The position numbers were made by a program, and so were the translations under genes. The notes under the pieces are model-generated. The model did not search any database. It was not told the origin of the DNA and saw only the letters and a program-made list of their open reading frames with translations. A stretch of 64,000 nt of DNA, taken from NCBI RefSeq assembly GCF_000264995.1, contig NW_006767452.1:155496-219495 (forward strand), in the 5' to 3' direction. Source of the DNA: Punctularia strigosozonata HHB-11173 SS5. Taxonomy: Eukaryota; Basidiomycota; Agaricomycetes; Corticiales; Punctulariaceae. Of the stretch, positions 18,431-49,004 are shown one piece after another (position 1 is the stretch's first letter; each line of letters begins with the position of its first letter).

Positions 18431-19115
18431 NNNNNNNNNNNNNNNNNNNNNNNNNNNNNNNNNNNNNNNNNNNNNNNNNNNNNNNNNNNNNNNNNNNNNN
18501 NNNNNNNNNNNNNNNNNNNNNNNNNNNNNNNNNNNNNNNNNNNNNNNNNNNNNNNNNNNNNNNNNNNNNNNNNNNNNNNNNNNNNNNNNNNNNNNNNNNN
18601 NNNNNNNNNNNNNNNNNNNNNNNNNNNNNNNNNNNNNNNNNNNNNNNNNNNNNNNNNNNNNNNNNNNNNNNNNNNNNNNNNNNNNNNNNNNNNNNNNNNN
18701 NNNNNNNNNNNNNNNNNNNNNNNNNNNNNNNNNNNNNNNNNNNNNNNNNNNNNNNNNNNNNNNNNNNNNNNNNNNNNNNNNNNNNNNNNNNNNNNNNNNN
18801 NNNNNNNNNNNNNNNNNNNNNNNNNNNNNNNNNNNNNNNNNNNNNNNNNNNNNNNNNNNNNNNNNNNNNNNNNNNNNNNNNNNNNNNNNNNNNNNNNNNN
18901 NNNNNNNNNNNNNNNNNNNNNNNNNNNNNNNNNNNNNNNNNNNNNNNNNNNNNNNNNNNNNNNNNNNNNNNNNNNNNNNNNNNNNNNNNNNNNNNNNNNN
19001 NNNNNNNNNNNNNNNNNNNNNNNNNNNNNNNNNNNNNNNNNNNNNNNNNNNNNNNNNNNNNNNNNNNNNNNNNNNNNNNNNNNNNNNNNNNNNNNNNNNN
19101 NNNNNNNNNNNNNNN
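18431..19115. other. Assembly gap (N)
   Basis: 685 consecutive N, flanked by (CA)n on the left and a C5A12 tract on the right. Both are low-complexity ends that plausibly broke the assembly. Protein frames across it are meaningless. Confidence 0.99.
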
Positions 19116-28214: not shown

Positions 28215-31200
28215 ATGGCTTCCCATCCACAGCCCGCGGTCGATCCGTCCAAGGAGCCCGAAGTCGCCGATTACCAGAAGAGATTGGATCGCGCCCTGGC
28301 GAATGGCGAGACGCTGTTATCCGTCGTGGAGGCGCTCACGGAGGGCGTCGTCGTCTGCGACCCTCTGAAAGGATCCGTCAAGCTGGCCAAGGAGCTCATC
28401 AAGATGGTGCAGGTACGAGACGGATGTTTACCTTTCATGCTCGTTCCATATCGACGCGACACTTGACAGAAAGTCCGCAAAAACCGAGATGACTGCGACG
28501 AGTTGGCCCGACGTGTATTCAAGCTGACCGGCACTATGCTCGGGATCCTCGACGGCAAGCGGGACGAAGACGTACCTCCAGAGCTCAAAACCTGTCTGGA
28601 CTCGGTTCACGCGTACGTCGAGCAGGGCTGCCACAAGATCTGGTATCATGTTAATCTCGCTCCTCTAGTACGCTGAAGAAAATCAAGGATGGTCTAGAAC
28701 CGCTCAGATTGTCGAAGCGATTCTCGTTCAGGGCTTGGATTCGGGCGCTCCTCAGGAGGGAATACGTAGCGGACCGGATCACCAGCTACAACGCCCAGAT
28801 CGATCAATGCCTTCAAGAGTTCACGGTGCGATACGACGATTGCATATCCTTCAAAATTCTGACCCTGCGCGTTTTTTCTTCTTCTAGGTTGTCGTCGTGG
28901 GACAGGTCAGCTTGGGGTTGATGACATTGAACTCCGCGGTGGGAGTCGTGTACTCTCGATTGGACGATGTCTACTCTAAAGCGAGGGACGTTAGCACGGG
29001 CGTGAAGAACGTTCATTCTGACGTCAAGAGCGTCCGTTCAGACGTGACGGATATATACACGGCGGTGATTCGGATTGAGTCTCTCATACACAAGCACTTG
29101 GAGGGTACTTCGAGCGGTACGCAGGCCAATGCCTCCATAGACGTTAGGTCCGTCGATCAGACTGGTCATGCGTGACAAAACATCCTGATAACAGCCTAGC
29201 AGCCTTCAATTTGTCCCTGCCCCTCCCCGCTTGTACGGACGAGATGCCACCGTGAAGGACGTAGTCGGCAAACTTTGCGATGCGGAACAATACCATATCG
29301 CCATCTTAGGGGTAGGAGGGATCGGCAAGACCTCCGTGGCACTTGGCGTCGCCGACGACTCGGTGATCAAGGCCCAGAACAACTGCTACTTCATCCGTTG
29401 CGACACACTCGGCACTGAAACATCCCTCGTCAACGCTGTTCTTCATGCTGTGGACCGTACCTCGTCGGTACACGGGGATCCCATGGAACACCTCAAGACG
29501 CGACTGGAGAAGTCGATCCGTCCCGTGATACTCATTCTGGACAACTTTGAGAGTTCCTGGGACTCGGACACTCCTTATATCAGACAAAAGCTCACCGAAG
29601 TGCTCAGGACATTAGCCGCGATCCCAAAGGTCCAGCTGATCGTGACTATGCGAGGAGACAGTCCACCCGCCGAGGCGGACGTCCAGTGGTCTCCTGTGCG
29701 TCTCGACCCTCTAGGGCATATACCAGCTCGCGAGCTCTTTCTATCCATAAAACCGGAGACGCCGCCGAATGAATACCGGGACCTCGACCTGCTCCTGGAA
29801 AAATGCGATGGCCTTCCTCTCGCCGTCAAACTCCTCGCCCAGCTCAAGCCATCGTCGACCTGCGGTCGCCTGCTGCAGCGATGGGATAAACGCAAGAGCG
29901 CGCTGTTGCAGACTGACCACCTCTCTCCGTCCCGCGAAACCAGCCTGCGCGTCTCCATCTCGATGTCGCTCGAGTCCGCACCGATGCGACTTATCCCCGA
30001 GGCGATCCCGTTGCTCGCGGTGCTCTGCCAGCTGCCGGATGGGATCCCGGGGGGCGTCAAACAGCTCGAGGAGATGGATCTCGGCTTTGAGGACGTCGAC
30101 GTGGCTTTGGCAACCGTACTTGGTTCCGGCCTGGCGTTCAAGGCAGCGGATGACAGTCTCAGAGTCCTTTCTCCCATCCGAGAGCATATCATCGACCATG
30201 ATGTCACCGTCCCGCAGCGACCCCTTCTTCCTCACCGCCAGTACGAGGCACTCCTGCGATATTACGTCCGGCTGGTCGAAACACATGCCCGTAGTAACCC
30301 CGGAGATGACGCATACAAGCCTGCATACGAGGCCTTGCTTCCTGAAATAGGCAATATCATCTACTTGTTCAAGCAGGAGCTTGTCCGTGGAGGAGACAAG
30401 GTGTCGGGTGTCGCACGGGCAGCGTACTCGTTCGCCCGCTTTCAGATCAACCTACGGCCCTCAACCGAACTCATCGACCTACTGCTAGACCACTGGGATC
30501 TCTACGAAATACGTAAAGCTCGCGGTGACGCTCTAGCGGTGAGGGGTGGCATTCTCATGCAGGCAGACCGGTATACGTCGGCGATGGAAGACTACGTCGC
30601 GGCCTGTGAGGACTATAAAAACTCCGGTGATATGCTACACCTGGCGTCTGCTTTGAAAGGGATTGGGGATGTCTATTACATGCAGAGTAGACACGACGAC
30701 GCCATGGCCGCGTACAACCGGGCCTACAACGTGTGCTCCGTGATTGGAGACAAACAGGGCATGGCGGATTGCCTGAAAGGCTGGGCCGACGTCCATCGCA
30801 TGAAGAACGAGTTACCACAGGCGATCATGAAGCTCACCTGGGCCCACCACCTGTATTCCAATATCGGAAACCGACGGGGCGTGACGAATTGCCTGGAGAC
30901 CTTGGGCGACGTCCATCGCATGCAGGGCGAGTACCCCCAGGCGATAAAGAAGCTCACTAGGGCCCACGACCTGTACTCCGAGATGGGCAACCGACAAGGG
31001 GTGGCAAATTGCCTGCACAGCTTGGGCGTGGTTCATCGCATGCAGAATGACTACCCGCAGGCGATAGAGAAGCTCATCCGGGCCCACGACGTGTACTCCG
31101 AGATCGGATCCCGACAAGGGGTGGCAAATTGCCTGCACAGCTTGGGCGAGGTTCATCGCATGCAGAATGACTACCCGCAGGCGATAGAGAAGCTCACCCG

Positions 31201-31840
31201 AGCCCACGACGTGTTCTCCGAGATCGGAGAGCGGCTGGGCATGGCGAGTTGCCTGCGAAGCTTAGGCGAGGTCCATCGCATGCAGGGCGAGTACCCCCAG
31301 GCGATAGAGAAGCTCACCCAGGCTCACGACGTGTCCTCCGAGATTGGAGACCGAAATGGCGTAGCTAATTGCCTGCGAAGCTTGGCCGACATCCATTGCG
31401 AGCAGAACGAATACCCCCAGGCGATAGAGGAGCTGACCCGGGCCCACGACCTGTACTCTGAGATTGGAGACCAGGATGGCGCTGCAGATGCTCTTCACAG
31501 ATTAGGCGATATTGATCGTATCCAGGGGCGATATGATCAAGCGGTCGAAAAACTGGGGCGCGCTCTTGACCTTGCTTCAAGCGCCGGGAACCAATTACGG
31601 ATGGCTTTATACCACATTTACATAGGCTTGCTCAATCACGACCAGAATCGCGATGCTGACGCGAACGAGCATTTTACGACCGCTCGGACATTGTTTACGG
31701 AGATCCAACACCAGACAAATGCGCAGTACTCCCCGCGCCTCATTGCTGCCATTCGCGAGTCAATGGTACGCTGCATTCGCCCGCAATATCCATTCGCCGC
31801 TGACCCGCGTCGTGAAGGTTGTAGCAGAAGCCGAGTCTAG
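28215..31840 (+). CDS. NLR-type STAND receptor 1: helical N-domain, NB-ARC, TPR array
   Basis: About 1,090 residues. N-terminal exons (28215-28830) encode a helical domain: 'TLLSVVEALTEGVVVCDPLK', 'KVRKNRDDCDELARRVFKL', 'KIKDGLEPLRLSKRFSFRAW'. It resembles the MLKL/HeLo-like four-helix domains of fungal NLRs. A coiled-coil linker repeats 'DVKSVRSDVTDIYTAV'. The NB-ARC exon starts near 29200 ('FVPAPPRLYGRDATVKDVVG') and has Walker A 'GVGGIGKTSVALGVADD', Walker B 'VILILDNFESSWDS', sensor 'LIVTMRGDSP' and 'CDGLPLAVKLLA'. A winged-helix region follows, then eight 40-residue TPRs (30646-31605) and a ninth degenerate one. The frame ends at 31840; by analogy with the paralogue, an intron after '...RESM' could change the last residues. 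These proteins act as ligand-gated ATP switches in immunity or heterokaryon incompatibility; ligand and effector action here are unknown. Confidence 0.85.
30646..31605 (+). repeat. 120-bp tandem repeats encoding TPRs (8 units)
   Basis: Units of 40 codons with core 'HRMQGEYPQAIEKLTRAHD' then 'YSEIGDRQGVANCL'. The central units (about 30880-31440) are near-identical at nucleotide level; the first and last are more diverged. Boundaries are approximate. Confidence 0.85.
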
Positions 31841-31921
31841 CTCTGCTACAGGTTCGGTCGCGAATAATGACGAAACTGGAGGTATATGAAATGCGATGTG
31901 CGAGTATATTTCAATCTTCGA

Positions 31922-32022
31922 TCAACGACATGCTCTCTTGAGCGCCTCGCAGAAGTTCCGCGTGACCGGCACGAAGTCCTGTTCGTTCATGTCAATAGGA
32001 TGCTTCGGGTCGTACGCAATGG
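31922..32022 (-). pseudogene. 3' exon remnant of a gene convergent with NLR 1
   Basis: Minus-strand reading 'AYDPKHPIDMNEQDFVPVTR' followed by 'NFCEALKRACR' and TGA (31922-31924). It is clearly related to the minus-strand exon after NLR 2 ('IDMNGQDFVKITRDICTTL'). No convincing upstream exons are seen in the next 500 bp, so it is probably a truncated copy. Family not recognised. Confidence 0.45.
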
Positions 32023-34200
32023 AATAGCAATCACGTACTATACTAGTATATGTCTCCTTCTTTGTATGCGGCTGTGGATGCGCATGGTGTCATTGGATCT
32101 GACAAGTTGGGAACAAATGTCCTACAGAAGGCGGACGTCATCGATTCGGTTTTTCAGGAACAAAAACATACGATTCACGGCTTACCCGGCACTGGATGGC
32201 AGGTATCGTGGTTCGGACTCACGGGAGATCAAGCGAGGAGCATAGGACGGATTTGCCGCCATTATGCCTGCGTGTTGAACACCCTAAGCTGGAATGACAC
32301 GAAGAAAACTGTCATGACGCACGTTATCACGGCGAAGCGTTTCCGTGAATAGTCTGACCGTATAAGCACTCGCGAGACGGCTGCGCCTCCGAAAGCCACC
32401 GCAGAACGTTGAGGGCGAGTGATGACCGGCCGAAGTCCGTATCACCGAAGGCTGGCATCGGGAACAGCGATTTTGAGACATTCTCCGTGAAATGCGGAGC
32501 GCGAGGAGACGGTCACAATCCGTCGCTGCCACCTTCGTTCTGGAGTTAAACTTCTCGGTTCACGTCTGGTTTCGAGATCTCTTGCTCATAACATCGCGTA
32601 GATACAACATACGCCAGAAAGCAGATATGTGATGGGAGCGGGTGCGGAGGCGCGCGCTTGATGATCGAGTTGACGACGTAGATATATCGTGACGCGGGAA
32701 ATGGGGGAATGTTGGAAGTCACGGCCGGATCCATTGAGATTTGAGACTCTTCAGTGAGCTGGAGCGATTCGTCAATTGAAGAAGGTCCATGGCTTGTTGT
32801 ATTGGATGCCACTCCGTGAGCATGTATGGCGATATGTATTCCGAGGACGAAAACGGTTTACGAGAGGATCAAGGCTGAGCTGTCCGCCTGTGAGCCGGAC
32901 GGAACAAAGATGGCGATGAGAATTTCGTCGGGAAAACTCTCGATCAACCGGCGAGCACGCTGCAACGTGAAGTTGGGGTGACGAGCTAGAAGCTTCATGG
33001 TTGGTTTGTGTTCCTGTCGAAGGCGCTCTGATGCAGGTGAGCAGTTATGATCTACAGAACGATATCGACGACCTACTTCCAACGTCCATGATCCCTCCAA
33101 GTTCACTCAGCATGCGCCGTCGACATGTCGACAATGTAGCTCCCGGAGAAGCTCTCCTAAGTAGAACTATACTGCAGCCCATCAGGAAAAACCGGATTTG
33201 CTAAAAACCTTCTAAAACGTACTAAAACGTGCTAATTTAGTAGCTTTAGAGGGTTTCGGTACCCAATAAGCGACTCTTTCGATAGTCCGATTTTTCCTGA
33301 TGGCCCGCCCTCTACCCCCTCACGCGAAGCGTGACATGGAGATCATTCCTTCACGTCCTCCTACGGACATTTGTGGACACCTGAAAGCACTATAACCGTG
33401 TTCCACAGGCTCGAACTCGAGAAGCTATACGTCCAGGACGAGATCGAATCAGTCGGAGATCCACGTCTCGACACGCTGGAGCACCAGAAGAGCGCTTCCC
33501 CTGATGCCGGTACGAGCTAATGCAATAATTCGGCGCTTTAATCTGTCCATGGTTCACGATGTTCATTGTAGGCGCTGCTAGTTACACGACCACGACTTCG
33601 TCAATAGTTGAGCGCTGATCGTGATAGCATTTCTTGAGTCGTAGGCCTTGTCATTGAAGCGCCCCTGATTGGAATGTTGTGGACTCACAAAAATTCAGGA
33701 ACATAAGCACCACAAGATTACCCATATCCATCTCGCCAGCAGTCCCACCACTGTGGCCATGGCAGTTGCGGTCCAAAGCCTTCCTGGCTGTGCATTCTGT
33801 TCTAGATTAGGCAATATTGCACAGCCCTCCGTTTGGAGGATCGAGCTCTTTGACTCCGCTAACGTACGCACCCATTGTATGCTGACTGCGCCTGTACCAT
33901 GTTCCTGCTCTCTATGGATTTGCAGCCCGGCATTATTGTCGCGGCGCGTCTAACGACTCAAAATGCTATATGGTTCTCCGAGCTAAGAATTACGGGAGGC
34001 TGTTGAATCCCAGTGCAACGTCTGCGTTCCGACGCGCTGAAAGTATGCTATTCTTGAAAGCACGGCGCCCCGAGCCCTCTCGCATCGCCATCTGTGGGCG
34101 GGACACCGCGTGATGGCCATGGGGGCGGTATGCACCTGACAACAAGCCAGCCTCTCTTCTTCCCTCCCTCGTCCTCTTCCCTCTGCTCACCTCACCGACG
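32023..34200. other. Intergenic between the two NLRs
   Basis: About 2.2 kb of short frames. Minus-strand 32858-33106 contains 'RRLIESFPDEILIAIFVPSG', which could be an F-box-like remnant. Plus-strand 33409-33520 could be a terminal exon ('LEKLYVQDEIESVGDPRL'). Neither can be built into a gene. A small inverted-repeat element lies at 33179-33303. Confidence 0.4.
33179..33303. mobile_element. Possible miniature inverted-repeat element (MITE-like, 125 bp)
   Basis: Ends are CCATCAGGAAAAACCGGA (33179-33196) and its reverse complement with one mismatch (33286-33303). The 89-bp AT-rich interior carries a CTAAAACGT direct repeat and no coding frame. No clear target-site duplication is visible, so a simple hairpin is an alternative. 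Confidence 0.4.
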
Positions 34201-37200
34201 ATGGAGCATCCCGAGGGGCTGAAGTGGAAGCGCTTCGATGCCGCACTCGAACACAGCAAAACGGTCCTCTCCGTCCTCGGTGCGATTTCGGATGGTCTCG
34301 TCATGTGCGAACCTCTCAAAGGCGCCGTCGGATTGGCCAAAGAGGTCGTCGCGATGATCGAGGTGAGTCGATGAACGTGCTTGGCTCCCGTATCGTATCC
34401 GGCGCTGACGCGGACTCCTTGTAGAAAGTCCGCAAGAATCAGAAAGCGTGTACGGAGCTGGCCCGCCGGATAGGCGCGCTGATCTTCGTCATCTTGAATG
34501 AGCTCGGTGGAAAGAAGGAAGAAGAGGTACCTGACCACCTCAGGTCATACCTCGGTAATCTGGCTCGGTGAGTGCCCGCGTGCGCTGGCGTCGGCGTGCT
34601 TATCCACCTTTTTCACAGAACGTTGACGGACATCAAGCAGGGGCTGATACCACTGAAGCTTCACAAGGAATTCTCGTTCGCTTCGTTTGGGTCGGCACTG
34701 CTAAGACGAGAATCCGTGGCGGAGCAGCTGTCGGGCTATAACAGTCAGATCGACCATGCTGCTCAGGAGTTTATGGTGCGACCGCCGCCGGCTTCCTCAC
34801 CATCGACGCAAGCTGATGTTTGTCTTCGATGCGCAGATCGCTACCCTCACCAATCTAACCCTCGGCATGAACAAGTTGCATATAGCTCAGGTCAGTTCGT
34901 CATCAGGTTGCTTGGCGTCCACTCACGCTTTGAACCAATATAGACCTCAACATCCGCTATTCCAAGGTTCGCTCCCCATATATATCCCATCCCAATGCGT
35001 TTATGTTGACGATTTGAAGTAGAATTCAGATCTCGTCTGTCGTCCCTACACCCCCGATCTACTTTTATGGACGAGATGATGTCGTAGAAGATGCGGTTGG
35101 AAAGCTAAGCGACAAGGAACGGCCTCACATCGCTCTTCTGGGTACCGGTGGCATCGGCAAGACGTCAGTCGCGCTGGCTCTCCTCGACCACCAGGCCATC
35201 AAGTCGCGCAATCGCTGCTGCTTTGTGCCATGTGACTCCCTTCTCACAGCGTCAGAATTGGTCCAGGCCATCGTGCAAGTTCTTGGTGGTAGCTCGTCAT
35301 CTGGCGGGGATCCTATGGAGAAATTGGCTTCTCTTTTGAACGTCGGGTCGGTGGTACTTGCGCTGGACAACTTCGAGAGTCCATGGGATTCGGGTGGTAC
35401 ACAGACAGAGCTCACCGAGGTTCTCCGCATGTTGGCTGCTTCACCGAACGTCCGGTTAATTGTGACGATGAGGGGAAATTCCCCGCCCGCTAAAGGAGAC
35501 GTTCGATGGTCACCCATCTCTCTGAACCCCCTATCCCCCGATGACGCGATGAAGCTCTTCTGTTCTGTCAATCGAGAAATCACAGAGAACGAGAAGCCAG
35601 ATCTCGATTTACTCCTGGACAAGTGCGGCGGTCTGCCGCTGGCCATCAAGCTGCTTGCCAGCGTCAAGGGTGATCTCCCCTGCTCCAGCCTCTTGCACCG
35701 ATGGGAACGACAGTCCACCGACATTCTCAAGGCCGAGCACGACTCTCCTACCCGCCTGACGAGCGTCGACGTGTCGATATCATTGTCCCTCGATTCGAAA
35801 CGGATGAAAGGCGTTCCGGAGGCGATTGCGCTGCTCGGCGTGATTTGCTGTTTACCTGACGGGGTTCAAGGGGGGATCGATCAACTGATCAAGATGAACT
35901 TGGGCCTGAAGGACGTAGACACTGCCCTCGCGACTGTCCTTGCCGCCTCTTTAGCTTTCAGGGCCTCCAATGGGTCCGTCAAGGTGCTTTCGCCGATCCG
36001 GCAATACATGTTGAAGCATCACCCCCCTTCCGCTTCACTCTATGACCAGCTCCTTCAACACTACATCCGGCTCGCGGACAAGTATGGGGATCTTGGCCCC
36101 AATGATATCGGTTTCACCGAGGCATGCGCTGTGTTGCTCCCAGAAGTAGGCAACATCACCTATATATTCAAGCAGGAGCTACTACGGGCGCAAGCAGGTA
36201 CACGGGGAGTTGCTCGCGCAGCCTTCAAATTCACGAACTTTCAATTATGGACACGCCCTTCGACTGATCTCATCGACGACCTGCTCAGTCGATGGCCAGA
36301 CTGTGGGCTGAACGTCGGGCGTCGAGAAGGCCTGGTAAGGAGGGCAAGATTGCGGCAGCGCACGAATGACTATTCGGCGGCCAAGGCGGATCTGGAGTAC
36401 GCACTGGCGGAGTCGACCGCAGTTGCGGATCAGAATATGGTAGCACGGTGCTTTCAAACCCTAGGCGACGTACATCGCATGCAGGGCGAGTACCCGCAGG
36501 CGATAGAGAAGCTCACCCGTGCCCACGACGTGTCCTCCGAGATCGGAGACCGACAGAGTGTGGCGTTTTGTCTGTCCAGCTTGGGCGAGATCCATCGCAT
36601 GCAGAACGAGTACCCGCAGGCGATAGAGAAGCTCACCCGGGCCCACGACGTGTCCTCCGAGATCGGAGACCGACAGGGCCTGGCGCATTGCCTATCCAGC
36701 TGGGGCGAAATCCATCGCATGCAGAACGAGTACCCACAGGCGATAGAGAAGCTCACCCTGGCCCACGAGATGTCCTCCGAAATCGGAGACCGACAAGGCG
36801 TGGCGTTTTGTCTGTCCAGCTTGGGTCACATCCATAGCATGCAGGGCGAGTACCCGCAGGCGATAGAGAAGCTCACCCTGGCCCACGACCTGTACTTCGA
36901 GATTGAAGACCGGATTGGTGCTGCAGGGGCTTTGCAGAGTTTAGGCGAGATTGATCGTATCCAGGAGCAATACGATCAATCCGCAGAGAAGCTAGGGCGT
37001 GCCCTTGCCCTTGCTTCCAGCATTGGACATCGCTATGAGATCGCTTGGTGTCATGTTTACATGGGCTTACTCGACCGCGACCGGCGTCGTTACGCCGAGG
37101 CCGTTGGGCATATCACGACCGCTTGGTCATTGCTCACGCAGATTGGACGAGAAGGCAACGCGGAGTACTGCTCAGATCTCCTTCGTGAGATCCTCGAGCT

Positions 37201-37266
37201 CATGGTAAGGTTGCCGTCACTCGCGACATGCATTCGCCGCTGACCCGCGTCGTCTAGGCTGAATGA
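34201..37266 (+). CDS. NLR-type STAND receptor 2: helical N-domain, NB-ARC, TPR array
   Basis: Tandem paralogue of the NLR at 28.2 kb, about 900 residues. Start 'MEHPEGLKWKRFDAALEHSK'; the helical domain continues 'SVLGAISDGLVMCEPLKG', 'KVRKNQKACTELARRIGAL' and 'TLTDIKQGLIPLKLHKEFS'. The linker is short ('TSTSAIPR'), without the coiled coil of NLR 1. The NB-ARC starts 'VVPTPPIYFYGRDDVVEDAV', with Walker A 'GTGGIGKTSVALALLD', Walker B 'VVLALDNFESPWDS', 'LIVTMRGNSP' and 'CGGLPLAIKLLAS'. Five full TPRs (36441-37040) and a degenerate sixth follow. A final small intron (from 37204 to the CTAG at 37257) leads to 'LMAE' and TGA at 37264-37266. Intron positions match NLR 1. All ATPase motifs look intact, so it is probably functional. 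Confidence 0.85.
36441..37040 (+). repeat. 120-bp tandem repeats encoding TPRs (5 units)
   Basis: Same 40-codon unit as in NLR 1: 'LGEIHRMQNEYPQAIEKLT' then 'RAHDVSSEIGDRQG'. The first four units are nearly identical to each other and to the central units of NLR 1. Confidence 0.85.
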
Positions 37267-37270
37267 GGAG

Positions 37271-37819
37271 CTAGCGATAGTTCGGCGACAGCCTCAACGC
37301 GACCGACGAACTCGAAGGTTTCATGAGGTGCGATGTACGAGTATAGTCCACTCCGTTGTGTGCGACATCTTCGGTGCGGGTGCTGCTACTATAAGCTCGA
37401 TGTTCCCTGCTACCTTTGCGGCTGCTTAGAGAACTCGCGCTGCCTGCCCTGAGCGTCGTGCAGATGTCCCGCGTGATTTTCACGAAGTCCTGTCCATTCA
37501 TGTCAATATAGTCGTTTGACTTGTACGATCCGGGCAGAAATCGCGTACCACATCACTAGATGCCTTCGTATCATCGTCATTGATCGTGTTTATCCGCCGT
37601 ACCATACTCCCCTGCGCATGTAGAGCTTGCAATGACCTCATCCGCGACGTGGTAGAGCTTCGAGAGCGGGTGCTCCATGCTGGGTGGGGAGTGGGGAAGC
37701 CTGCGGCGCTCTCGCAATCCATTTACCCCAATGAACTCGCCGGTTTCGAGGCGGCGGCGGATATAGTCCTCAAAGATGCGGTGTAACCCGCCGACGAACG
37801 CGTATGTCCGCATGTTCAC
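37271..37819 (-). CDS. Partial or decayed gene convergent with NLR 2
   Basis: The minus-strand exon encodes 'SNDYIDMNGQDFVKITRDIC' and a Ser/Arg-rich tail with a stop at 37271. A possible upstream exon (37819 down) reads 'MNMRTYAFVGGLHRIFEDYI' and 'RRRLETGEFIG', then across a ~47 bp intron 'MEHPLSKLYHVADEVIASS'. The join between these parts is not resolved. The 3' exon matches the remnant after NLR 1. I do not recognise the family. It may be a live small gene or a relic. Confidence 0.35.
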
Positions 37820-39484: not shown

Positions 39485-42400
39485 ATGGATCCGAACCGGA
39501 CGGCACACGCCGGGTCGTGGGCGAGCGCGCCCCCAGCGGCCGGCCCTTCGTCGTCGTCGTCGCCCGGAAGCTTCCCTTTCTCGTCCGCTTCGGGGCAGCC
39601 GGGGTTCGCCTTTGACGCGTGCGAGCTCGAGGAGGCGAAGGTGTTTGGGCGGCAGCAGCAGCAGCAGCCGTCGCCAGGCGCTTCCGGATTCGGACAGCAG
39701 CAGCAAGGGCAACAAGATCACCACGCCGGCGCGCCTTTTTCTCCCCTCGGGCCGTCTTATCAGCCGCATCACGCGCCGTTCGACGCGCTCTACCACCCGG
39801 CGCACGCCCAGCAGCCATTATACGCCCAGGAACGGTCGCCACTCCCCTTGTCGTTCGAGTACAACGCCCCTTTGCCCCCCGGAGCCCATATAAACCTCTA
39901 CCCACCCGCCGCCTTCGCTCACAGTCCAGCCCCCGCCCCCGCCTCCCACGCCGAATTCCACCCCCAGCCCGCGTCCGAGTCCGCAGCCTTTCCGCCGAGC
40001 CTTGATCCGCGCCTCGCCCACACCCACCCACACGCTCTCCTCGTCCCCGCCGACGACCACCACCAGCTCGCGCTCATGCCCACCTTCGCGAACAGGCACC
40101 ACGCGCACGCGCCCCAACACGCGCAGCGCCGTCCGGGCGACGAGTCCAGCGGCCAGGAGCCGTACACCGACACCTCCGATGACGCCGCTTCGTCCTCGTC
40201 TTCGTCCGCCGGGAGCCCCTACCCGCACGCCTCCCAGCAGCAGCCGCCGCCGCAGCAGCAGCAGCAGTACCAGCAACAGCAGCAGCCGCTCTCTCAGGAA
40301 GAGCGCGAACGCCGCCACGCAGCAGCCGCCTACTACGAGCGCGAACGCGCGCGGAAGCAAGCCGAAGAGCGCGATCGCGAACGCCACCGCGAGCGCGCGA
40401 CCTCGCACGCCAGCCGGACGTACTACCCCGCCTACGACGCGCAGAACAACCGCGTCGGGATCGAGCCGGTACGTCCCCCTCCCCCTGCCTCCGATCGCCC
40501 CCCGATCGCTGACGTCTCCGTCCAGCTCGACGCGCGCCCCGGCCCGCCGCCCGACCGCCCGTACTACCGCGAGCGCGTGCGCAACTACCCCGGCCAGGAC
40601 TTTGGCACGCACGACTACTCGTTCCAGCGCACCGCGCCGCCCCCGCCGCGCGAGTCGATCATGTACCCGACCTCGTCCCACGGCGGCGCGACGACGGGCC
40701 GCCTCCAGCCCGCGCGCTACACCCCCCCTCCTCCTCCCGGTCCCCCCTCGACGCGCCCATGCCCGACGCCTACCCGCCGGACCCCCTCCGCCTGCCCCAA
40801 GCCCCCGCTCCCCCGCCCCCGACGCTCGACTTTTCCCAGCAGCAGCCCCCGCCCTCGCACGCGAACTGGCAGCGCTACGTCGACCCGGACCCGCGCCTGC
40901 GCCCGGCCTCGCCCGAGTCGGCGCACTCTCGCCAGATGCGCGAGGTCCTCGCGCTCTCGGCCGACATGCCGACCACGCTCGCCGACCTCCACGACCCGCC
41001 GGACGGCGCGCGCCCGCAGTACTCGCTCCCGAACCTCGCCGCGCTCGCGATCAACGGGAGCGAGAAGAAGATGCTCACGCTCCAGGGCATCTACGAGGCC
41101 ATCCAGGCCCGGTTCAAGTGGTACGAGGAGCACAAGAACGATAAGAAGGGGTGGAAGGTGAGCGAAAAACGCGGTTTCGAGGCGGATGTTTTAAGGCAAG
41201 CTGATGGATGTTTGTTCTCGATGTTGCAGGGCTCGATCCGCCATAATCTGTCGTTGAACAAGATCTTCAGGAAGATCCCGAGGCCGATCACCGAGCCCGG
41301 CCAGGGCAAGTACTGGACGCTCGACTTTTCCCAGGGCGCGGGCAACAAGCGTGAACGCCGCCGCGGGAAGGGCAAGCGCAAGCAGCAGCAGGAGCAAGAG
41401 GGCCAAGAGCAAGGGCAGGAAAAGCAGAACACGCGCCGGACGCGCAAAAGCAAGCGGCGCGCGGCGGACGACGAGGACGAGGACGACAGCGACGCGATGG
41501 ACACGGACGACAGCGACGACAGCGAGAGCGCGGCGGAAGAGGCGGACAAGACCGCCGCGCGCGCGCGGGCGCGGCGCGAGCGCGAGCGCCAGACGAGCCT
41601 CACCGAGGAGGACCTCGAGGCGATCGCGGACCGCGCGAGCATGAGCGCGAGCCCCGCGCCCTCGCCCGCGACCTCGATCGACATGCAGATCGATCCCGCG
41701 CTCCGCGGGGACGAGGGGCACGTCGTGGGCGACGCATCCGCCCCGCGCCGTCCGCGCCCGCGCCCGATCAGCCGCGCCAGCCCGCGCCCCGCGCCGTACC
41801 CCACCCCTATGCGCCTCCCTACCGGCGCGCCGGTCGGGATGCCGAATATGGCGATGGGCATGCACCCCGCCGCGTACCCGCCGCCTCCTCCCCCTCCGCA
41901 CGGCGCGTTCGGCGGGCCGTCGCACTCGCGCTCGCCGTCGGGCGAGGCCTCGGACGAGCAGCAGCAGCAGCACGTGAACTTTCAAGGTCAAAGCTCAGGG
42001 CAGCCGGGGAAAGCGCCGCAGCCGTACCGCGAGCACCAGATCAAGCTCGGCCGGCTGGGCGCGAACGCGCCCGCGGCGCCGCACCCGCAGGGCCAGGCGC
42101 CGCCCACGTTCGGCGCGACGGGCTTTGGGCAGCCGTCCGGGCCTGGCTTTGGGCGGTTCTCGTCGCATCCTCCCGGGGCGTTCGGCTCGCAGCCTCAGCA
42201 GCAAGCGCAGGGGATGATGGGCGGCAACGGCAACCACAACAATCCGAACCCGAACCAGGGCCAGCATTATCGTACTGCGCCACAGGTGCCGGCCCAGTTC
42301 CAGGCGCCGCAGGGGATGGTCCCGCAGGCGGCGTATGTGCCGGCACATCAGCAGCAGCAGCAGCAGCAGCAGCAGCAATCGCAGCAGGGAATGCCGGTGT

Positions 42401-42567
42401 ATGGGCGGGTGAGGCCGGATGTGGAGATCGTACGCCATGGAGGGTTGCCGATGGCTATCCCGCGACAGCAGATGCAGCAGCCCAATCCGTTCGGGGTGGG
42501 TAGCCCGGCGGGATCGGGCGGATCGGGCTCTGGGTCATCAAGCTCGACACCGACACGGACGTCGTGA
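39485..42567 (+). CDS. Forkhead transcription factor
   Basis: About 984 residues. The N-terminal half is disordered, rich in Gln, His and Pro, with polyQ tracts (near 39655, 40255 and 40275) and a charged helix ('QEERERRHAAAAYYERERAR'). The forkhead domain (about 41015-41370) reads 'QYSLPNLAALAINGSEKKML', 'YEAIQARFKWYEEHKNDKKG', then 'GSIRHNLSLNKIFRKIPRP' and 'GQGKYWTLDF', with helix 3 (SIRHNLSLN) intact. A basic region and an acidic Asp/Ser tract follow, and the C-terminus is Pro/Gln-rich with another CAG run (42348-42377). Introns at 40469-40525 and 41158-41229 are multiples of three. The frame shifts by one base at a C-run near 40742-40747. With one C added there, the spliced length is divisible by three, so a homopolymer error in the assembly is likely. 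ATG at 39485 is the first in frame. Targets unknown. Confidence 0.88.
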
Positions 42568-48109: not shown

Positions 48110-49004
48110 TCCAGCTCTTCCAGTCGGGCGATTTGTCTGCGGATGCAGTCAGCTATGTGTCCTAAGAAGCTGGCAGTGCAGCGAGCACTTACTTATCCCT
48201 GACTGCTTCCTGCCAACGCTGCAGTTTGGCGATCTCGTTCACCTGGAAGCCGAAGATCTTAGGGCGGTAGCGTTCGGCCTTGAGCGCCGCGGTCGCGGTG
48301 CTGAGACCCTCCGCCGCGCCTTCGGCGACCACCTCGTCTTCGCGCGTCGAGCCTCGCCTCCGCACGCCCTTCGCCCAGTCTTCGGCCCTGCCATCGCCCC
48401 GGGCCGGATCGGAGGGGTTCGCCTTGGGAGGGATGAGGTGGGGGTAGACGAGGAACATGAGGTGGGGGAAGGTGGTACCGAAGTACGCGCCATCGATCGA
48501 GCCATGACGGGAGCTCTTCGGGGAGTAGATGTCCTCACACCGGCCGCAGTATAGCTTGACCGACTTCTCGTACGGGACGTCCGTGAGGCCGACGGGGAGG
48601 AGTGGCTGAGACTGGCAGAAGACGCGCGGGCAGCGACCGAAGTCGGCGCGCTTGTATTTGTCGAGCATCTTCGAGAGGCCGCGCACGGTGACGATCCATC
48701 GCGCGTGGATGAGGCCGTATAGTAGACGGGCTTGGACATCGAGCGACCCTCGAAGCTCGTCCTGCACGTCGTCGTCTTCTGGGCCAGTGTGGGATCAGGG
48801 GCTGGGTGGACGTGCGACGATTCACGTACCTAGATTATCCGTTATCAGATCCAGCGCTTGTGAGTAGTTGGCCACTTCGGTGTTTAGACCGGTAAGGTTG
48901 AAGCGGTCGAGGATGTAGTCTTCTTCGACTTCGCAAAAGTATTCGTTCCCTTTAGAGGAGAGGAACCACGATATCCACTGCAGAGCGTTACAGTCGGATC
49001 TCAT
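48110..49004 (-). CDS. CKB1: Casein kinase 2 regulatory (beta) subunit
   Basis: The main exons encode '[20 protein letters not shown]' and '[20 protein letters not shown]', then '[20 protein letters not shown]'. The zinc finger is C-x4-C ('[17 protein letters not shown]') and C-x2-C ('[19 protein letters not shown]'), followed by '[20 protein letters not shown]', the CK2 beta dimer interface and C-terminal docking region. A Ser/Glu/Ala insert separates this from '[20 protein letters not shown]'. The reading frame can stop at 48189, but splicing from GTAAGTGC just before that stop to a small exon gives '[11 protein letters not shown]' and TAG at 48110-48112, which I prefer. The N-terminus is unsettled: an ATG at 49004 reads '[10 protein letters not shown]', while an upstream exon ('SDSDYSK', near 49085) can be spliced in frame but lacks an ATG. 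Confidence 0.9.

What the first reader, a model, noticed from the sequence alone, without database searches (positions are those of the whole stretch)
28215..37266. Tandem pair of fungal NLR (STAND) receptors with a putative cell-death N-domain
Two paralogues share helical N-domain, NB-ARC and TPR array, with the same exon layout and all ATPase motifs visible (GGIGKTS, LDNFES, GLPLA). The N-domains look like the MLKL/HeLo-like four-helix bundles linked to membrane disruption in other NLRs. That makes this locus a candidate immune or allorecognition module and the main accessory system of the window.
Basis: partly seen in the sequence, partly recalled or inferred. Interest (0 to 1): 0.72.

Follow-up and report, generated by a model that had tools for sequence, protein, structure and literature searches.

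The report
Two fungal MLKL-like NLR immune receptors
Two neighbouring genes of a fungus encode intact immune-type receptors with a probable membrane-attacking front end and a variable sensor end; they belong to a family of about a dozen in this genome and are of a kind already described in mushrooms and their kin.

Summary
NLRA (28215-31840, 1132 aa) and NLRB (34201-37243, 919 aa) are intact genes coding for a helical N-domain, NB-ARC and a TPR array. The MLKL-like call is supported: Pfam MLKL_N matches NLRB above its cut-off and NLRA 0.2 bits below it, 10 of 12 family members match at E<=1, and 0 of 8 reversed sequences do. This is the published 'BaMLKL' type of basidiomycete NLR (PMC9815663), so a new member of a known kind.

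Two corrections. The genes are adjacent but not a recent tandem duplication: over N-domain plus NB they are 49% identical, and each has closer relatives on other contigs. They belong to a family of 12 loci plus one relic. NLRA also has a heptad coil exon that NLRB lacks.

Added here: N-domain and NB are under purifying selection. The 40-aa TPR units vary most at TPR positions 5, 15, 38, 2, 9 and 12, four of them ligand contacts. Synonymous divergence is mosaic, which suggests sensor modules recombine between diverged receptors. Cell death, allorecognition and strain variation could not be tested.

The parts
28215..31840 (+). NLRA gene, 5 exons, 1132 aa: MLKL-like N-domain, heptad coil, NB-ARC, TPR array
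   Evidence: spliced model; Pfam; coil-bearing members of the same clade (C22_278, C22_306, C11_824) modelled
28215..28825 (+). NLRA N-domain, exons 1-3 (28215-28412, 28470-28612, 28669-28825); MLKL_N match at residues 55-168, whose last residues run into exon 4
   Evidence: PF22215 26.8 bits, cut-off 27
28888..29147 (+). NLRA exon 4: long single helix with heptad periodicity; a 21-nt tandem repeat lies at 29001-29045
   Evidence: AlphaFold model of the contiguous exon: helix 2-74, mean pLDDT 86; hydrophobic periodicity at 3.5 residues, 0 of 2000 shuffles reach it; TRF
29200..30673 (+). NLRA NB-ARC and following helical region; GGIGKTS from 29315
   Evidence: Pfam NB-ARC; motif spacing
30674..31633 (+). 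NLRA TPR array, eight 40-aa units
34201..37243 (+). NLRB gene, 6 exons, 919 aa: MLKL-like N-domain, short linker, NB-ARC, TPR array
   Evidence: spliced model; same exon layout in the C22:72 kb copy
34201..34775 (+). NLRB N-domain, exons 1-3; MLKL_N match at residues 43-154
   Evidence: PF22215 31.7 bits, E 1.3e-7, cut-off 27
34944..34966 (+). NLRB 23-nt micro-exon between N-domain and NB-ARC; the same length in C22_72 and C22_270
35023..36352 (+). NLRB NB-ARC and following helical region; GGIGKTS from 35147
   Evidence: Pfam; nearest solved sequence is a plant NLR, 6j5t, E 4.1e-10
36353..37192 (+). NLRB TPR array, seven 40-aa units
   Evidence: confident helical-pair array in the model

Best explanation
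NLRA and NLRB are NLR (STAND) receptors of the basidiomycete MLKL-like type. The likely working is as follows. The C-terminal TPR superhelix binds a ligand on its concave face. Binding releases autoinhibition of the NB-ARC, which exchanges nucleotide and oligomerises. That clusters the N-terminal four-helix bundles, which insert into or permeabilise membranes and kill or wall off the compartment, as MLKL, HeLo-type and plant coiled-coil executioners do. In NLRA-type members the long heptad coil between bundle and NB would act as an oligomerising brace or stalk; NLRB-type members do without it. Shown here: domain order, motifs, intactness, the MLKL_N similarity, the coil, the variable TPR positions, purifying selection, and mosaic divergence between paralogues. 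Inferred: ligand binding, oligomerisation, membrane attack and cell death.
For: MLKL_N at 31.7 bits in NLRB and 27.0 in C11_824 (cut-off 27), 26.8 in NLRA, 10 of 12 members at E<=1, and 0 of 8 reversed controls. Profile to MLKL sequences of the PDB, weak. NB closest to plant NLRs 6j5t and 9fyc. TPR array modelled with confidence; Foldseek finds TPR domains first and a STAND-TPR structure, 6mfv, at rank 25, loosely superposed (TM 0.35-0.39). P-loop, LDNFE and GLPLA spacing in all 10 members with a P-loop exon free of in-frame stops, of 12 loci; two of the ten have runs of N in the array. dN/dS 0.17-0.21 in the N-domain and 0.08-0.32 in the NB. The six most variable TPR positions include four of the six published ligand contacts (PMC1261162). 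All 40 N-domain matches in the genome fall in the 13 family loci (one query, best candidates only), so no separate executioner of this type was found and it is probably in cis.
Against: No activity data. The PDB profile hits to MLKL are weak (best E 0.03) and four designed helical proteins rank above them. MLKL_N is below cut-off in 6 of the 9 members scored and has no match in C4_44 and C15_626. The N-terminal extension may change how helix 1 reaches a membrane. Averaged over all codons the TPR units show pN 0.14 below pS 0.26, and positions 5, 9, 10 and 38 do not show pN above pS.
Confidence: 0.65

Rival explanations
1. The N-domain is an oligomerisation or adaptor helical bundle that recruits another effector (signalling, not membrane attack); the MLKL resemblance is a generic helical one.
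For: Four designed helical proteins outrank MLKL in the PDB profile search; 8 of the 9 members scored are below the MLKL_N cut-off or have no match; PMC9815663 (section 12) asks for experiments before death activity is attributed to Goodbye-like domains, which share the N-terminal extension.
Against: MLKL_N is the only Pfam family for the NLRB N-domain; all nine matches whose range was printed start at profile position 5; 0 of 8 reversed N-domains match.
Confidence: 0.25
2. NLRA and NLRB work as a sensor-helper pair, which would explain their adjacency and their different linkers.
For: Same orientation, 2.4 kb apart; on C22 an NLRA-type gene (C22_278) likewise lies about 8 kb from a gene outside the NLRA clade, C22_270.
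Against: The other two NLRA-type members (C22_306, C11_824) and the NLRB-like C22_72 have no family locus within 20 kb among those found; both window genes have a full sensor, switch and executioner.
Confidence: 0.1
3. The locus is decaying paralogue debris without function.
For: C20_128 has a stop soon after its P-loop, no P-loop pattern was found in C20_298, and the C9:1269 kb copy lacks NB-ARC.
Against: NLRA and NLRB are open, keep the motifs, and show dN/dS well below 1 in N-domain and NB against their nearest paralogues.
Confidence: 0.05

Closest known systems
BaMLKL (basidiomycotal MLKL-like) fungal NLRs, PMC9815663
   Same: MLKL_NTD-like N-domain preceded by an N-terminal extension, fused to a NOD
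   Different: Here the NOD is NB-ARC with TPR and 12 loci sit in one genome; the NLRA type adds a heptad coil exon. The N-domain structure could not be computed here.
Podospora NB-ARC/TPR NLRs with polymorphic, positively selected repeats, PMC4986451
   Same: NB-ARC paired with highly conserved TPR units, differing unit numbers, variable sites on the concave face
   Different: The N-domains named in the passages read are other ones (sesB-like, PFD, unknown); there variation was measured between strains, here only between paralogues of one genome
Plant NLR proteins 6j5t and 9fyc
   Same: NB-ARC sequence similarity
   Different: LRR instead of TPR (recalled); the profile search of the N-domain listed no plant NLR
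HeLo / HeLo-like executioners (HET-S, HELLP)
   Same: Placed with the MLKL bundle in one superfamily (PMC12881547, passages)
   Different: No family named HeLo among the 25 of 26 Pfam families shown; a weak PF17111 match (PigL_N, recalled as the former Helo_like_N) in 2 of 12 members; no amyloid motif was sought

Membership tests
Fungal NLR (STAND NB-ARC/TPR) | NB-ARC domain with P-loop, Walker B and GLPLA | tested here: met
Fungal NLR (STAND NB-ARC/TPR) | C-terminal superstructure-forming repeats | tested here: met
Fungal NLR (STAND NB-ARC/TPR) | N-terminal effector domain | tested here: met
   MLKL_N match; effector activity itself untested
BaMLKL-type NLR | MLKL_NTD-like sequence match | tested here: met
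   NLRB 31.7 bits over cut-off 27; NLRA 26.8, just under; 0 of 8 reversed controls. The CDD model used in the paper was not available; Pfam PF22215 was used.
BaMLKL-type NLR | extra N-terminal helix (hG) ahead of the MLKL register | tested here: inconclusive
   42 residues precede the match in NLRB and 54 in NLRA; helicity not modelled
BaMLKL-type NLR | four-helix bundle fold | not testable with these tools
BaMLKL-type NLR | found in Basidiomycota | not tested
   genome unnamed; fungal origin inferred from short introns and domain content
MLKL / HeLo cell-death executioner | membrane permeabilisation and death | not testable with these tools
   needs experiment
Allorecognition (het) gene | strain polymorphism that triggers incompatibility | not testable with these tools
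   one genome held, no relatives

The most novel reading that the evidence does not exclude
The family is a set of diverged executioner-plus-switch chassis that draw on a common pool of TPR sensor units and whole sensor modules by recombination between loci, so that a recognition specificity can move between receptors with different N-domains. NLRA and NLRB, next to each other but from different clades, would be two such chassis.
Probability: 0.4. Interest if true: 0.5.

Novelty: new member of a known kind. Interest (0 to 1): 0.35.

Why it matters
MLKL-like NLRs link fungal, animal and plant cell death, and in the passages I read no basidiomycete receptor of this type had been tested for killing. 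This family gives intact, related receptors with and without a coil, variable sensor sites, and a paralogue set in which executioner, switch and sensor have diverged to different degrees: a practical set for testing what each part does. Taken alone, the locus is an ordinary example of a large known class.

Tried and rejected
A giant TPR receptor: open frames of 3633 and 2639 aa at C22:72 kb and C4:44 kb looked remarkable but span runs of N (8349 and 5060 bases; assembly gaps or withheld stretches, not known which) in the repeat array. Recent tandem duplication: rejected by the tree and identities. Subtelomeric position: no TTAGGG arrays on C20 or C22, which does not exclude it, since the contigs may be incomplete. 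PF22215 searched directly in the genome gave 0 matches, as expected if introns split the domain. phmmer of the NLRA N-domain alone against the PDB found no MLKL. NB fold: the two-row model is poor there (321 of 739 residues with pLDDT under 50), so only its TPR part is used. Strong concerted evolution of units within each gene: the effect is real but small (85.1% within against 82.8% between genes, 0 of 2000 label permutations reach it; 85.4 against 83.0%, 3 of 2000). TPR positions 6 and 13 (contacts) and 33 and 34 (variable in PMC1261162) are conserved here; with the paper's seven variable positions the excess of diversity is not significant (p 0.06). Low A-B divergence of units caused by constraint alone is not excluded: end units, a control, differ more for A-B (pS 0.56 against 0.32), but of 15 pairs some show a smaller or reversed contrast (means 0.38 and 0.32 for the two end segments, 0.28 for core units). 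My unit pattern had missed 2 of 42 core units; one search repeats the unit statistics with all 42.

Full report
What is there. The window lies at C20:155496-219495 of a 33.6 Mb, 32-contig genome, taken to be a fungus from its short introns and domain content; no call named it. Spliced models give NLRA, 5 exons, 28215-31840, 1132 aa, and NLRB, 6 exons, 34201-37243, 919 aa, same strand, 2.36 kb apart. The NLRB layout, micro-exon included, was found again by a spliced aligner on a paralogue at C22:72 kb. NB-ARC and TPR families exceed Pfam cut-offs in both. P-loop GGIGKTS, LDNFE and GLPLA sit at near-constant spacing in all 10 loci that have a P-loop exon free of in-frame stops. Of the other two of the 12 loci, C20_128 has a P-loop but a stop soon after it, and in C20_298 only GLPLA was found.

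The N-domain. Pfam MLKL_N (PF22215) matches NLRB at 31.7 bits (E 1.3e-7; cut-off 27) and NLRA at 26.8 bits. Across the 12-member alignment A1, 10 of 12 match at E<=1. Scored singly, 7 of the 9 others given match (C11_824 27.0, C3_1723 23.6, C22_278 21.2, C22_306 21.1, C22_270 19.9, C20_128 18.7, C20_298 14.6 bits) and C4_44 and C15_626 do not; C22_72 was not scored singly. MLKL_N is the best match for 6 of those 9; for C22_270 another family scores slightly better. All nine matches whose range was printed start at profile position 5. None of 8 reversed N-domains (of 12, cut at 175 residues) matched it. A profile of A1 against PDB sequences gave 18 hits at E<=10, six of them MLKL (best 4btf, E 0.03), in about one register, but four proteins that I take to be designed helical ones scored better, from 2.6e-8. 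The MLKL register starts near residue 43 in NLRB, so an N-terminal stretch precedes it; PMC9815663 (passages, section 12) describes an extra N-terminal helix in basidiomycotal MLKL-likes, about 600 sequences, whose largest cluster was modelled as a four-helix bundle. The most amphipathic 18-residue stretch of the family average is residues 37-54 of NLRB (moment 0.53), with 55-72 close behind (0.51). The fold itself could not be predicted, because the domain is spliced.

The linker. NLRA exon 4 is predicted as one helix, residues 2-74, mean pLDDT 86, from a single sequence, with 3.5-residue hydrophobic periodicity that 0 of 2000 shuffles reach (2, 3 and 66 of 2000 for C22_278, C20_298 and C11_824). 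NLRB lacks it and has a 54-nt exon plus a 23-nt micro-exon instead.

The switch. NLRB's NB region is closest among solved sequences to plant NLRs: 6j5t (E 4.1e-10; named RPP13-like protein 4 in the file, recalled by me as ZAR1) and MLA13, 9fyc (8.7e-5).

The sensor. The TPR arrays have 40-aa units, 8 in NLRA and 7 in NLRB counting end units. The AlphaFold model of the NLRB last exon, made with NLRA's as the only other row, is confident in the array and poor in the NB. Foldseek finds LGN/Pins TPR domains first and a STAND-TPR structure, 6mfv, at rank 25 (E 4.9e-8, TM 0.35-0.39, rmsd 17). Variation was measured on the 42 core units among the 56 units of 7 genes; end units, the three genes with divergent arrays or gaps (C3_1723, C15_626, C4_44), C22_72 units after its run of N, and the two stop-bearing loci were left out (one search is the same on 40 units). 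Positions were numbered by my own fit to the TPR consensus. The most variable are TPR 5, 15, 38, 2, 9 and 12. PMC1261162 (passages) names 2, 5, 6, 9, 12 and 13 as ligand contacts; their mean diversity here is 0.50 against 0.20 elsewhere (Mann-Whitney p 0.011), carried by four of the six, 6 and 13 being conserved. With the paper's seven most variable positions (2, 5, 9, 12, 13, 33, 34) the excess is not significant (0.43 against 0.20, p 0.064). Of the nine positions with diversity of about 0.5 or more, pN exceeds pS at 2, 12, 15, 31 and 36 but not at 5, 9, 10 and 38; over all codons pN is 0.14 and pS 0.26. PMC4986451 (passages) reports positive selection on the concave face of Podospora NLR TPRs.

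The family. NB-domain and N-domain searches of the genome find 12 loci with N-domain and NB including the two in the window, and a relic at C9:1269 kb where N-domain pieces run into TPR without NB. All 10 NB-ARC matches in the genome at E<=0.001 and all 40 N-domain matches fall in these loci; both counts are lower bounds by the tool's own statement. NACHT gives 23 matches, two of them family loci. In a tree of 10 members NLRA groups with C11_824, C22_278 and C22_306 and NLRB with C22_72, both groups at 100/100; NLRA and NLRB are 49% identical over N-domain and NB, whereas NLRB and C22_72 are 93% and NLRA and C22_278 75%. Pieces covering 33781-37690 around NLRB, and one at 32445-32976, are shared with C22.

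Selection and exchange. dN/dS against near paralogues is 0.17-0.21 in the N-domain, 0.08-0.32 in the NB, 0.18-0.23 after it and 0.43-0.64 in the linker or coil. Synonymous divergence is uneven along genes: C22_278 against C22_306 has dS 0.069 in the N-domain, 0.49 in the NB and 0.14 after it. C22_270 and C22_278 differ at synonymous sites by 0.74 and 0.69 in N-domain and NB but by 0.18 in core TPR units and 0.11 and 0.09 in the two end segments. NLRA and NLRB differ by 0.58 and 0.75 in N-domain and NB, 0.56 and 0.58 in the end segments, and 0.33 in core units, no more than units within NLRA (0.35) or NLRB (0.33). This points to exchange of sensor modules and units between loci. Within-gene similarity of units exceeds between-gene similarity slightly. 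Constraint on the repeats cannot be excluded as a contributor, and the contrast with end units does not hold for all 15 pairs.

Surroundings. Among 20 selected ORFs scanned against Pfam only two gave a match over a cut-off: a Forkhead gene at 40513-42564 and a CK2 regulatory subunit gene at 48192-48794. A 123-bp dispersed repeat lies between the two NLR genes. No RNA family reached its threshold in the window.

Verdict. Intact members of a known class, BaMLKL-NB-ARC-TPR NLRs. Cell death is the best-supported reading of the N-domain but untested. An allorecognition role is neither supported nor excluded; [quoted passage not shown] Literature was sought; passages of PMC10197012 and PMC3192844 were also read and changed nothing.

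Noticed in passing
window 33180-33302: A 123-bp repeat with inverted ends between the two NLR genes; 42 further matches at 91-99% identity across the genome, a lower bound, and a strong predicted hairpin; no Rfam match over threshold. Looks like a MITE-type element.
   Followed up: partly
C9:1265001-1272000 (L050), minus strand: A family relic in which N-domain pieces run straight into a TPR array with no NB-ARC match between; either a deletion relic or a switchless variant.
   Followed up: partly
window 34944-34966; L039 2752-2774; L041 2086-2108: A 23-nt micro-exon in three members between N-domain and NB-ARC; skipping it would shift the frame and could switch the receptor off.
   Followed up: no
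L039/L040 (C22:74576-82924) and L044 (C4:46029-51088): Long runs of N inside the TPR arrays of two paralogues, which make false giant open frames.
   Followed up: yes
window 32445-32976: Stretch between NLRA and NLRB about 69% identical to the region upstream of the C22:72 kb copy; the nearby minus-strand ORF 32858-33106 recalls an F-box motif by eye but has no Pfam match at E<=0.01.
   Followed up: partly
window 18431-19115: 685 Ns directly after a CA dinucleotide repeat, in the stretch of lowest GC.
   Followed up: no
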